NCBI RefSeq assembly: GCF_004342845.1
Contig: NZ_SLXB01000011.1
Location: 1 to 64,000 of the forward strand
Origin: Prevotella heparinolytica
Lineage (GTDB): Bacteria; Bacteroidota; Bacteroidia; Bacteroidales; Bacteroidaceae
Direction of reading: 5' to 3'
DNA: 64,000 nt
Below, in pieces: positions 15,766 to 31,480 of the stretch (the first letter of the stretch is position 1; every line of letters starts with the position of its first letter). A program made the translations under genes and the position numbers. Under the pieces are notes generated by a model that was not told where the DNA came from, searched no databases, and saw nothing but the letters and a program-made list of their open reading frames with translations.

Positions 15766-16025
15766 ACCTGAATTCGGTATAAAACAAGATGTTATATGCC
15801 TGTTAAATACTTGTATATATCTTGCCGTTTTCCTCGCATATATGAGGTGCTGAACGTCGCATATACGAGACCACACACGTCGCATATACGAGACTACACA
15901 CGTCGCATATACGAGACCACACACGTCGCATATACGAGACTTGGCACCACTGATTGACCCCTCCGGGAATGCCTCCGGGAGCGTTTTTTGTATAGGCGGA
16001 GTCTCTTTTTACATCGAACTCAGGT
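15766..16025. mobile_element. Miniature inverted-repeat element, copy 2 (260 bp, different interior)
   Basis: The left end ACCTGAATTCGGTATAA (15766) and the right end read in reverse ACCTGAGTTCGATGTAA (16009-16025) match at 14 of 17 positions. TATATA duplicates at 15760-15765 and 16026-16031. The interior is unlike the other two copies and contains a 23-bp tandem array. No transposase is encoded. It has landed inside a 22-bp array unit. Confidence 0.7.
15856..15940. repeat. Tandem array, period 23 bp, about 3.7 units
   Basis: GTCGCATATACGAGAC followed by CACACAC repeats at 15856, 15879, 15902 and 15925, with one C/T difference. The core TCGCATATACGA is nearly palindromic. The array lies inside the miniature element at 15766-16025. 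Confidence 0.85.
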
Positions 16026-23124: not shown

Positions 23125-24423
23125 ATGTTCAGACTCATATTGAAGAATCTTTGGGCACGCCGCCGTCGCAACGGATGGCTGTTGGCCGAGTTGTTGCTGG
23201 TAAGCATCCTCGCTTGGGTGATATTAGACCCCGTTATTGTGGTGACGCACGACCGCAGCATTCCCCTCGGCTATGATGCCGACCGACTTTGCCTGGTTTC
23301 GCTGGCCGCTTTGCAGCCGGGCGCTCCGGGCTATGATGCGGAGAAGCGGGACTCGGCCACGCTGATGGACAATTACATGAATTTGGTGCGCCGTGCCCGT
23401 AGTTTCGAGGGTGTGGAGCGCACAACGCCGCTGATGGGTTTTTGTTATCCTTGCTCGCAAGGAAACAGCAGCAACGTCATGATGGCCGAAAACGACACAC
23501 TGCGTTATCAAATGTTGTGGATGCAGTTTCTGCCCCATACGCAATTCTTCGAGACCTACGGCTTTCGTCCGGCAGCGGGAAGAACGCCCGAACAACTGTC
23601 CGACTACGACTATGCGAAGAATGACCTTGTACTCTCGGCGAATACCGCCCGAGCGCTTTTCGGACGGAGCGACGTGTCGGGCAAGCGTTGTTGGAGTGCT
23701 TATGCCAATGATACGACTTACTATCCGGTGGCCGGTGTGCTGGGAACGTTCAAGGCTTACAGCGAATGGAAGCCTGTCATGGTTGCTTTCCGCCCCATGC
23801 TGTCTGTCGATGCGACCAATATACCGGAATACGTCCAGATATTGGTTCGGCTCAAGGAGGGCGTCAGCATGAAGCGTTTTCTGCACGACTTCCGTCCGTG
23901 GATGGTGAAAGAACTCAGGGCAGGCAACCTCTTTGCCCGGCAGGTGCGCTCCTACGATGCCATCATTGCAGAGCGCGAGGCTACAAGCGCAGGGCCCATC
24001 TACCGCCGCAATCTGGCGATGGCGGCTTTCTTCCTCATCAATCTTTGCCTGGGCGTTATCGGCACTTTCTGGTTGCAGACGCGTACACGGCGTGAGGAGG
24101 TGGGCGTGATGCTCTCGTTCGGAGGAACGCCCGGCCACATCATACGTATGCTGATGGGCGAGGGGGCGGTTCTCACTGTGACGGCTTCGCTTGTCGGTTT
24201 CTTCATCTACCTGCAATATGCCCTGAAGGAGGGGCTGCACAAGGGGCTGTCATGGATGGAGGGGACGGCCGACTCTTACTGGGTGAGCGACTTCACGCAG
24301 CATTTCATCGGAGTGTCGCTCATCATCTTCATTCTGCTGCTTGCAGTGGTGATGACGGGTATCTTTTTCCCGGCACGCAACATCAGCCGCATTTCTCCCA
24401 CGGAAGCCTTGCGCGACGAGTAG
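23125..24423 (+). CDS. MacB/FtsX-like ABC permease, type B, copy 1
   Basis: The 432-residue permease starts MFRLILKNLWARRRRNGWLL, like the other type B proteins (27518, 30057), and ends PTEALRDE. It has one N-terminal helix, a periplasmic domain and three C-terminal helices with the FtsX loop REEVGVMLSFGGTPGHI. It pairs with the type A gene 45 bp upstream, probably as a heterodimer. A 14-unit 23-bp array separates it from the ATPase gene. Confidence 0.87.
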   Translation: MFRLILKNLWARRRRNGWLLAELLLVSILAWVILDPVIVVTHDRSIPLGYDADRLCLVSLAALQPGAPGYDAEKRDSATLMDNYMNLVRRARSFEGVERTTPLMGFCYPCSQGNSSNVMMAENDTLRYQMLWMQFLPHTQFFETYGFRPAAGRTPEQLSDYDYAKNDLVLSANTARALFGRSDVSGKRCWSAYANDTTYYPVAGVLGTFKAYSEWKPVMVAFRPMLSVDATNIPEYVQILVRLKEGVSMKRFLHDFRPWMVKELRAGNLFARQVRSYDAIIAEREATSAGPIYRRNLAMAAFFLINLCLGVIGTFWLQTRTRREEVGVMLSFGGTPGHIIRMLMGEGAVLTVTASLVGFFIYLQYALKEGLHKGLSWMEGTADSYWVSDFTQHFIGVSLIIFILLLAVVMTGIFFPARNISRISPTEALRDE

Positions 24424-24450
24424 GGAAGTGCTGTTCTATCTGTGTTCTAT

Positions 24451-24792
24451 GAGATACTGATGTCATTGCTCATGAGATACGTATGTCGTTGCTCATGAGA
24501 TACGTATGTCGTTGCTCATGAGATACGTATGTCGTTGCTTATGAGATACGTATGTCGTTGCTTATGAGATACGTATGTCGTTGCTTATGAGATACGTATG
24601 TCGTTGCTTATGAGATGCTGATGTCGTTGCCCATGAGATGCTGATGTCGTTGCCCATGAGATGCTGATGTCGTTGCCCATGAGATGCTGATGTCATTGCC
24701 CATGAGATGCCGATGTCGTTGCCCATGAGATGCCGATGTCGTTGCCCATGAGATGCCGATGTCGTTGCCCATGAGATATATACGACGTTGAC
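24451..24792. repeat. Tandem array, period exactly 23 bp, 14 full units
   Basis: GAGATACGTATGTCGTTGCTCAT repeats without spacers from 24451 to 24772, with a decayed fifteenth copy after it. Variants come in blocks: GATACGTATG units first, then GATGCTGATG, then GATGCCGATG, which suggests stepwise local duplication. ATACGTAT and CTCATGAG are palindromes within it. It fills most of the 437-bp gap between permease B1 and the ATPase. It is the only array inside an apparent operon. Confidence 0.93.
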
Positions 24793-24860
24793 AACAGTAT
24801 ATATATGTGTCTGAAAAGAGAATAATAAACCAAATAATAACAATTTAATACTTTACCATT

Positions 24861-25526
24861 ATGATTAAGTTAACAGGCATCAACAAGATTTATCGTACGA
24901 ACGAGATTGAGACCGTAGCATTGGAGAATGTAAACCTCGAAGTGAACAAAGGCGAGTTCCTCAGCGTCATGGGACCGTCGGGTTGCGGCAAGTCTACCTT
25001 GCTGAACATCATGGGCTTGCTCGATGCTCCCACCGGCGGCACCATCGAAATTGCGGGCACCGGGGTAGAGGGCATGAAAGATAAGGAACTGGCCGCTTTC
25101 CGTAACCGGAATCTGGGCTTCGTGTTCCAGTCTTTCCACCTGATTAACTCATTGAATGTGCTGGACAATGTGGAGTTGCCGCTGCTGTACAGAAAGGTGT
25201 CGGCCAAGGAGCGTCGCCGGCTGGCTGAAGAGGTGTTGCAGAAGGTGGGGCTGAGCCACCGCATGCGCCACATGCCCACGCAGTTGTCCGGCGGTCAGTG
25301 CCAGCGTGTAGCCATTGCCCGTGCCATTATCGGCAATCCGGAGATAATCCTTGCCGATGAGCCTACGGGTAATCTGGACTCCAAGATGGGTGCCGAAGTC
25401 ATGGAACTGTTGCACCGGCTCAACAAAGAAGACGGGCGCACCATCGTGATGGTGACGCACAACGAAGAGCAAGCCAGGCAGACTTCAAGAACAGTCCGCT
25501 TCTTCGACGGACGGCAAGTGGGATAA
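24861..25526 (+). CDS. ABC transporter ATPase of the MacB/LolD type
   Basis: The 221-residue protein has GPSGCGKST (Walker A, about 38-46), the signature LSGGQCQRVAIARAI, IILADEPTGNLDS (Walker B) and a switch His in VMVTHNEE. FQSFHLINSLNVLDNVELPL (Q-loop region) is typical of the LolD/MacB/FtsE subfamily, which drives FtsX-fold permeases by mechanotransmission. It is the only ATPase in the operon and must serve up to three permease pairs. Confidence 0.95.
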   Translation: MIKLTGINKIYRTNEIETVALENVNLEVNKGEFLSVMGPSGCGKSTLLNIMGLLDAPTGGTIEIAGTGVEGMKDKELAAFRNRNLGFVFQSFHLINSLNVLDNVELPLLYRKVSAKERRRLAEEVLQKVGLSHRMRHMPTQLSGGQCQRVAIARAIIGNPEIILADEPTGNLDSKMGAEVMELLHRLNKEDGRTIVMVTHNEEQARQTSRTVRFFDGRQVG

Positions 25527-31307: not shown

Positions 31308-31355
31308 ACTTTTTTATCCTTTTTCGGTATTCGTGCATTAAGATGCGGGTGATGC

Positions 31356-31480
31356 CTCTATAGAGATGCGGGTACTCTCTCTATAGAGGCGTTGACACTC
31401 TCTCTATAGAGGCGTTAATGCTCTCTCTATAGAGACGCATGTGTTGTCTCTATAGAGAGATTGGCCGCATCTCTATAGAG
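31356..31480. repeat. Palindromic tandem array, period exactly 23 bp, six units
   Basis: The perfect palindrome CTCTATAGAG begins at 31356, 31379, 31402, 31425, 31448 and 31471, each 23 bp from the last. The bases between vary (GATGCGGGTA, GCGTTGACA and so on). It lies 49 bp past the last permease stop. The rest of the 31308-31595 gap holds only the sensor-gene promoter. Confidence 0.92.

What the first reader, a model, noticed from the sequence alone, without database searches (positions are those of the whole stretch)
24451..24792. Fourteen-unit 23-bp array inside the export operon, with blocks of unit variants
The array separates permease B1 from the ATPase, the only array here that lies within an apparent operon. 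Its variants are ordered in blocks (ATACGTATG, then ATGCTGATG, then ATGCCGATG), a record of successive local duplications. Copy number could tune expression of the ATPase and the two downstream permease pairs relative to the first pair.
Basis: partly seen in the sequence, partly recalled or inferred. Interest (0 to 1): 0.65.

Follow-up and report, generated by a model that had tools for sequence, protein, structure and literature searches.

The report
Palindromic 23-bp array linked to HU-proteins
A stretch of fourteen 23-letter repeats between two transporter genes of a Bacteroides belongs to a genome-wide system of evenly spaced palindrome arrays, other copies of which sit just upstream of genes for HU-like (histone-like) DNA-binding proteins, which suggests what this large, little-studied protein family binds.

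Summary
The array is real: 14 full 23-bp units, 24449-24770, plus a decayed partial unit, in ordered variant blocks, between an FtsX/MacB-type permease and its ABC ATPase. The operon-tuning idea found no support: the array is absent from this site in 14 related loci, and the same unit recurs at unrelated loci.

It belongs to a larger system. In 1.25 Mb of this Bacteroides genome about 105 tandem arrays have period 22 or 23, nearly all intergenic, most with palindromic cores. For this family (core ATACGTAT), 47 of 58 neighbouring core pairs sampled across the genus are exactly 23 bp apart while the spacer centre is nearly random.

The key result: nine of 16 HU-HIG (PF18291) genes here carry a 23-bp array just upstream of their start, against 10 of 778 other genes (P = 3e-12). 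Seven distinct units are involved, and 21 of 22 period-23 array entries sampled match one of them. The window array matches the one upstream of the HU-HIG gene at C4:2158. Other Bacteroides show the same arrangement with other palindromes.

Best reading: a dispersed binding array for an HU-HIG protein that grows and shrinks by whole units. Binding and any effect on the operon are inferred, not shown.

The parts
24449..24770 (+). The array: 14 full 23-bp units of family G1 (core ATACGTAT and its decayed variants)
24472..24609 (+). Units 2-7, the block with the intact palindromic core ATACGTAT
24610..24770 (+). Units 8-14, blocks ATGCTGATG and ATGCCGATG, whose core is no longer palindromic (no hairpin predicted)
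24771..24793 (+). Decayed partial 15th unit
23125..24423 (+). FtsX/MacB-type permease upstream of the array
24861..25526 (+). ABC transporter ATPase downstream of the array
31341..31478 (+). Array of family G3 (core CTCTATAGAG, step 23) after the last permease of the same operon; unit matches the array upstream of HU-HIG gene C14:55922
15854..15940 (+). Array of family G2 (core CGCATATACGAG, step 23), inside a MITE; unit matches the arrays upstream of HU-HIG genes C32:7573, C24:51138, C27:51892
15766..16025 (+). The MITE that carries the G2 array: inverted ends ACCTGAATTCG / CGAACTCAGGT

Best explanation
The array is a dispersed copy of a palindromic array family (core ATACGTAT, 23-bp step). 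The copy at C4:1965-2073 ends about 85 bp upstream of the start codon of an HU-HIG gene (PF18291, C4:2158) and is probably that gene's own operator. SHOWN: the 23-bp arrays of this genome fall into families, and nearly all share their unit with an array upstream of an HU-HIG gene; spacing is fixed while spacers vary; unit number differs by one whole unit between two close species. INFERRED: an HU-HIG dimer binds each dyad; successive dimers 23 bp apart form a regular nucleoprotein row; the promoter copy gives autoregulation; dispersed copies bind or titrate the same protein. Recognition could be of sequence (paralogues differ mainly in the first ~45 residues) or of the extruded dyad (HU proteins are known to favour cruciform and bent DNA). 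Arrays grow and shrink by slippage or unequal exchange of whole units, and spread on MITEs (shown for family G2) or by exchange between loci. In this operon the array is most likely a recent insertion that may act as a protein-bound block between permease and ATPase; that last step is the weakest.
For: Nine of 16 HU-HIG genes have a 23-bp array upstream vs 10/778 other genes, P = 3e-12; vs 5/256 genes with long upstream gaps, P = 1e-9. 21 of 22 period-23 array rows match an HU-HIG-upstream unit better than shuffled units (p <= 0.01); the window array matches C4:2158 at 18/23, next best 14/23. The 13 closest homologues of C4:2158 in four other species all have 22-24-bp arrays upstream; 18 of 30 overall. 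Protein and unit similarity correlate, Mantel r = 0.45, p = 0.0002. ATACGTAT arrays sit upstream of HU-HIG genes in G056 (two), G160 and G071 as well. Step 23 in 47 of 58 core pairs with near-random spacer centres.
Against: No binding data. Seven of 16 HU-HIG genes here lack a 23-bp array. G123 and G134 have ATACGTAT arrays but none beside an HU-HIG gene. HU-HIG C4:2158 and C24:51138 are identical from about residue 60 to 118 yet have unrelated arrays. The abundant 22-bp families of this genome have no HU-HIG partner here. Half of the window units have lost the palindrome. Genes beside dispersed arrays share no function.
Confidence: 0.6

Rival explanations
1. Selfish or neutral minisatellite of the BrickBuilt kind: carried into intergenic gaps by MITEs or recombination, expanding by slippage, with no bound protein and no role; HU-HIG promoters merely tolerate it.
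For: Family G2 rides on a MITE with 8-bp target duplications. Arrays occur in all classes of gap. Absent from the orthologous site in relatives. Unit number varies between close species.
Against: Does not explain the strong excess upstream of HU-HIG genes, a different unit per paralogue, the fixed step with varied spacers, or arrays kept at one locus between species with 72-82% identical flanks.
Confidence: 0.22
2. One reading: copy number of the array tunes expression of the ATPase and the downstream permeases relative to the first permease pair.
For: Position inside the operon; family shows whole-unit variation; the 437-nt gap RNA is predicted to fold more stably than shuffles, z = -3.0.
Against: Absent in relatives with the same gene order; dispersed copies at unrelated genes; promoter and terminator scans of the gap give no more than chance.
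Confidence: 0.1
3. RNA-level element: transcribed hairpins that stabilise, process or terminate mRNA.
For: Many unit families form hairpins as single strands; mild excess between convergent genes.
Against: No compensatory covariation within units; the asymmetric family F2 shows no sense bias (2 sense, 2 antisense among co-directional gaps); no Rfam match except tRNAs; arrays in divergent gaps.
Confidence: 0.05
4. REP/BIME-type palindromes mobilised by a RAYT (Y1 transposase).
For: Short dispersed palindromic intergenic elements.
Against: No PF01797 (Y1_Tnp) match in this 99.99% complete genome, while five control genomes give one.
Confidence: 0.02

Closest known systems
BrickBuilt minisatellite/MITE of Porphyromonas gingivalis (Klein et al. 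2015, PMC4596501)
   Same: 23-nt imperfect tandem units, intergenic, dispersed, 1 to 22.8 copies, part of the unit conserved and part variable; consensus AGAYCATARTATCCTCTCRTRTG holds the palindrome TCTCATATGAGA across the unit junction (my reading of the consensus); element 14 lies next to a PF00216 DNA-binding protein gene.
   Different: BrickBuilt elements share a leader, a tail and terminal inverted repeats; the window array shares no ends with its relatives. No link to HU-like genes was drawn in the passages read. Different sequence and genus.
HU-HIG proteins, PF18291 (Bacteroidetes-expanded HU/IHF superfamily; described, from memory, by Burroughs et al. 2017, Cell Cycle, not held in the library)
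   Same: The gene next to the copy of this array family at C4:1965-2073 is an HU-HIG gene.
   Different: I found no report of paralogue-specific tandem palindrome arrays upstream of these genes.
Iteron or tandem operator arrays of plasmid replication and partition systems (general knowledge)
   Same: Works like: phased direct repeats of a protein site beside the gene of the binding protein.
   Different: Chromosomal, many paralogues with different units in one genome, copies dispersed far from the gene; no replication or partition role shown.
REP/BIME elements with RAYT transposases (general knowledge)
   Same: Dispersed intergenic palindromes, partly in clusters.
   Different: No RAYT gene here; fixed tandem period; paired with HU-HIG genes.

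Membership tests
BrickBuilt-type MITE with minisatellite | Tandem 23-nt imperfect repeat in an intergenic region | tested here: met
BrickBuilt-type MITE with minisatellite | Shared leader and tail with terminal inverted repeats around the array | tested here: not met
   Flanks of the G1 arrays in this genome and others are not shared beyond orthologous loci; met only for the separate G2 family
BrickBuilt-type MITE with minisatellite | Repeat sequence of BrickBuilt itself | tested here: not met
   Unit differs from the published consensus; BrickBuilt pattern absent from this genome
HU-HIG-linked palindromic array (kind defined in this report) | Fixed 22-24-bp step with dyad core and variable spacer | tested here: met
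   Step met in the window; family-level spacer variation; only units 2-7 keep the full dyad
HU-HIG-linked palindromic array (kind defined in this report) | Same unit family upstream of an HU-HIG gene of the same genome | tested here: met
   C4:1965-2073 upstream of C4:2158
HU-HIG-linked palindromic array (kind defined in this report) | The HU-HIG protein binds the array | not testable with these tools
   Needs EMSA, DAP-seq or ChIP-seq
REP/BIME with RAYT | RAYT (Y1_Tnp) gene in the genome | tested here: not met
RNA hairpin element | Compensatory covariation or an Rfam match | tested here: not met
Copy-number-variable expression tuner (VNTR) | Unit number differs between strains at this locus | not testable with these tools
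   One genome per species is held; a whole-unit difference was seen at another locus of the family

The most novel reading that the evidence does not exclude
Bacteroides carry a diversified, satellite-like chromatin system: each HU-HIG paralogue reads, by sequence or by cruciform structure, its own phased 22-24-bp palindrome array, regulates itself through the promoter copy, and packs dispersed arrays across the chromosome into regular nucleoprotein rows, with protein and repeat co-evolving quickly between species as centromere proteins and satellites do in eukaryotes.
Probability: 0.3. Interest if true: 0.92.

Novelty: new variant of a known kind. Interest (0 to 1): 0.76.

Why it matters
HU-HIG proteins are a large expanded family in Bacteroides (5 to 45 PF18291 matches per genome in the 12 genomes sampled) with no DNA target that I could find in the literature held. 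The pairing found here names candidate targets for nine paralogues in one genome and makes the question directly testable in a laboratory Bacteroides strain. It could also account for many of the recurrent 22-23-bp minisatellites of Bacteroides, and it offers a lead on BrickBuilt in Porphyromonas gingivalis.

Tried and rejected
REP/RAYT: rejected, no Y1_Tnp. RNA hairpins: no covariation, no sense bias. Promoter or terminator in the gap: no more than chance. Rfam: only two tRNAs in the window. MITE origin of the window array: no shared ends found. Classical regulon: genes beside dispersed 23-bp arrays look unrelated (named by eye from the translations, e.g. IF-2/CvpA, PurD, MATE pump, poly-P kinase, dTDP-glucose dehydratase). 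Linking the 22-bp families of this genome to HU-HIG genes: no convincing match except one (C1:292086, 20/22 to an HU-HIG-upstream unit of G123). PF14848 as another HU family: no hit above its cut-off. BrickBuilt pattern in 393 Bacteroidales genomes: none, and P. gingivalis is apparently not in the sample. Solved structures of HU-HIG: no match.

Full report
OBSERVATION. The array stands as described: 14 units of 23 bp at exact 23-bp steps, 24449-24770, with a decayed partial unit after it. Variant order: 1 x ATACTGATG, 6 x ATACGTATG, 4 x ATGCTGATG, 3 x ATGCCGATG. It lies between an FtsX/MacB-type permease and an ABC ATPase in a run HlyD - FtsX - FtsX - array - ATPase - DUF2807 - four FtsX permeases; a histidine kinase gene follows.

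NOT A PRIVATE FEATURE OF THE OPERON. The upstream permease was found in nine named Bacteroides records and in further genomes. In 14 loci where I read the sequence after the permease (L028-L036, L039-L041, L043, L044) this array is absent; in several the gap is only 20-40 bp, and in three (L030, L032, L035) another gene than the ATPase follows. One species (L033, Bacteroides sp. UBA939) has another repeat in this gap, with motifs 23 bp apart but a different palindrome. Several relatives hold a dyad and a sigma-54-like motif in the gap (by eye); the window lacks them. In its own genome the same unit forms arrays at C4:1965, C38:12706 and at the contig ends C11:101833 and C35:1; the last two consist largely of the block-2 variant, so unit variants are shared between loci.

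GENOME-WIDE PERIOD. TRF on 1.25 Mb of this genome gives 106 rows at period 22 and 23 rows at period 23, of 302. Merged, these are 105 arrays; with a strict gene set 25 lie between convergent, 45 between co-directional and 23 between divergent genes, 10 in predicted genes and 2 at contig ends. Each family keeps one step, 22 or 23, usually with a palindromic core and variable flanks. Samples of other Bacteroides show 21-23-bp arrays with other palindromes. Samples of 40 kb from each of three other genera gave none in two and one weak array in the third, too little to draw a boundary.

SPACING IS CONSTRAINED. The pattern ATACGTAT-N(6-30)-ATACGTAT was searched in 159 Bacteroides genomes; 27 have it, and most listed matches have gap 15, i.e. 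step 23. In fetched sequence 47 of 58 neighbouring cores are at step 23 (others: 21 x4, 22 x4, and 13, 15, 30), while the middle nine spacer columns carry only 0.1-0.5 bits. Strongly varied spacers with almost no change of length suggest selection on spacing, as expected for cooperative protein sites; growth by shuffling of modules that keeps length is an alternative. No compensatory covariation was found within units.

VARIATION. At one locus with 97-99% identical flanks, G065 has 4 and G123 has 5 units. Two further loci keep a G1 array between species with 72-82% identical flanks. So arrays change by whole units, yet some persist.

THE HU-HIG LINK. Some G1 arrays in different species lay beside the same type of gene, identified as HU-HIG, PF18291. 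In this genome PF18291 has 22 matches; the 16 whose reading frame and start I could place were used. Nine have a 23-bp array upstream: C14:55922 (CTCTATAGAG), C32:7573, C24:51138 and C27:51892 (TCGCATATRCGAG), C4:2158 (ATACGTAT), C9:21628 (TCACCGCAGTGAG), C13:54630 (TCGCCATAGCGAG), C12:98223 (GGAAGTC...GCCTTTG) and C9:42917 (GTCGAACTTACAGTACGGC). The array of C12:98223 lies inside the longest reading frame but upstream of the conserved start, and was counted after this correction; without it the count is 8/16, P = 1e-10. Against other genes: 9/16 vs 10/778, P = 3e-12; among genes with an upstream gap of at least 250 bp, vs 5/256, P = 1e-9. Some paralogues are close relatives, so the genes are not fully independent. 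Of 22 TRF rows of period 23, one of them the C4:1965 array itself, 21 match one of these units better than shuffled units (p <= 0.01); the exception is C1:9328. The window array matches the C4:2158 array best, 18/23.

OTHER SPECIES. Of thirty HU-HIG loci from ten further Bacteroides, chosen by similarity to C4:2158, 18 have lag 22-24 arrays upstream at match >= 0.6, among them all 13 closest homologues. Further genes: 6 of 25 in G123 (three of them already in the first set) and 9 of 15 in G134, some starts uncertain. Protein and unit similarity correlate (Mantel r = 0.45, p = 0.0002). In some species dispersed and HU-HIG-upstream arrays share the same flavour of unit, by eye, e.g. GACATACGTACATCGG in G020. 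But G123 and G134 have ATACGTAT arrays and no HU-HIG gene beside one. In P. gingivalis, BrickBuilt element 14 is next to a PF00216 DNA-binding protein gene (PMC4596501); this is a lead, not a test.

HOW IT MAY WORK. HU-HIG C4:2158 and C24:51138 are identical from about residue 60 to 118 but differ in the first 45 residues, although their arrays are unrelated. Either the N-terminal extension reads the sequence or the proteins recognise dyad structure; HU proteins are known to favour cruciform and bent DNA (general knowledge). Half of the window units have lost the palindrome, so if binding needs it only about six units would be active. Any effect on the ATPase remains open.

VERDICT. The link has strong statistical support; binding and function are inference.

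Noticed in passing
window 15766-16025; also C4:68.4k, C1:276.7k, C1:315.0k: A MITE with inverted ends ACCTGAATTCG / CGAACTCAGGT carries a G2 23-bp array; copies at C4 and C1:315k have clean 8-bp target duplications (TATAAGGA, ATGTATTA).
   Followed up: partly
window 5334, 20235, 40916, 54192 and about 80 further loci of the sampled genome: Several abundant 22-bp array families (GACAGACACAAGTGTCTG, AAGTGTGGGCWTA, GTTCCTCACCGAGGAAC, ATTTTTAGTAAAAAT, ATCAGTCGTATACTGAT, CTTGTACAAG) have no HU-HIG partner in this genome; what maintains them is unknown.
   Followed up: partly
window 40916 and 54192; C1:283027; C4:143540; C4:1965: Single units or spacers occur inverted inside arrays while the step is kept, which suggests template switching or inversion at the palindromic cores.
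   Followed up: no
C38:12706-12984 and C2:125244-125559 of the same genome: Arrays of two different families stand side by side (G1 with G3, G4 with G2); the window operon also has G1 at 24449 and G3 at 31341.
   Followed up: no
L029, L033, L034, L040, L041, L043: gap between permease and ATPase: A conserved dyad (e.g. GTGTCCGATATCGGACAC) followed by a sigma-54-like motif (TTTTGGCACGACTTTTGA) suggests an internal promoter before the ATPase in relatives; the window gap lacks it.
   Followed up: no
window 11089; C4:2685-2858; L044 gap; near HU-HIG loci L202, L206, L207, L209: A second repeat type of step 7/14/21 (GTTAGTG / ATCACTAACC heptamers) occurs in intergenic regions, repeatedly near HU-HIG genes.
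   Followed up: no
C11:101833-101927 and C35:1-244: Two contigs end inside arrays of the same 23-bp unit, so one long array may have broken the assembly there.
   Followed up: no
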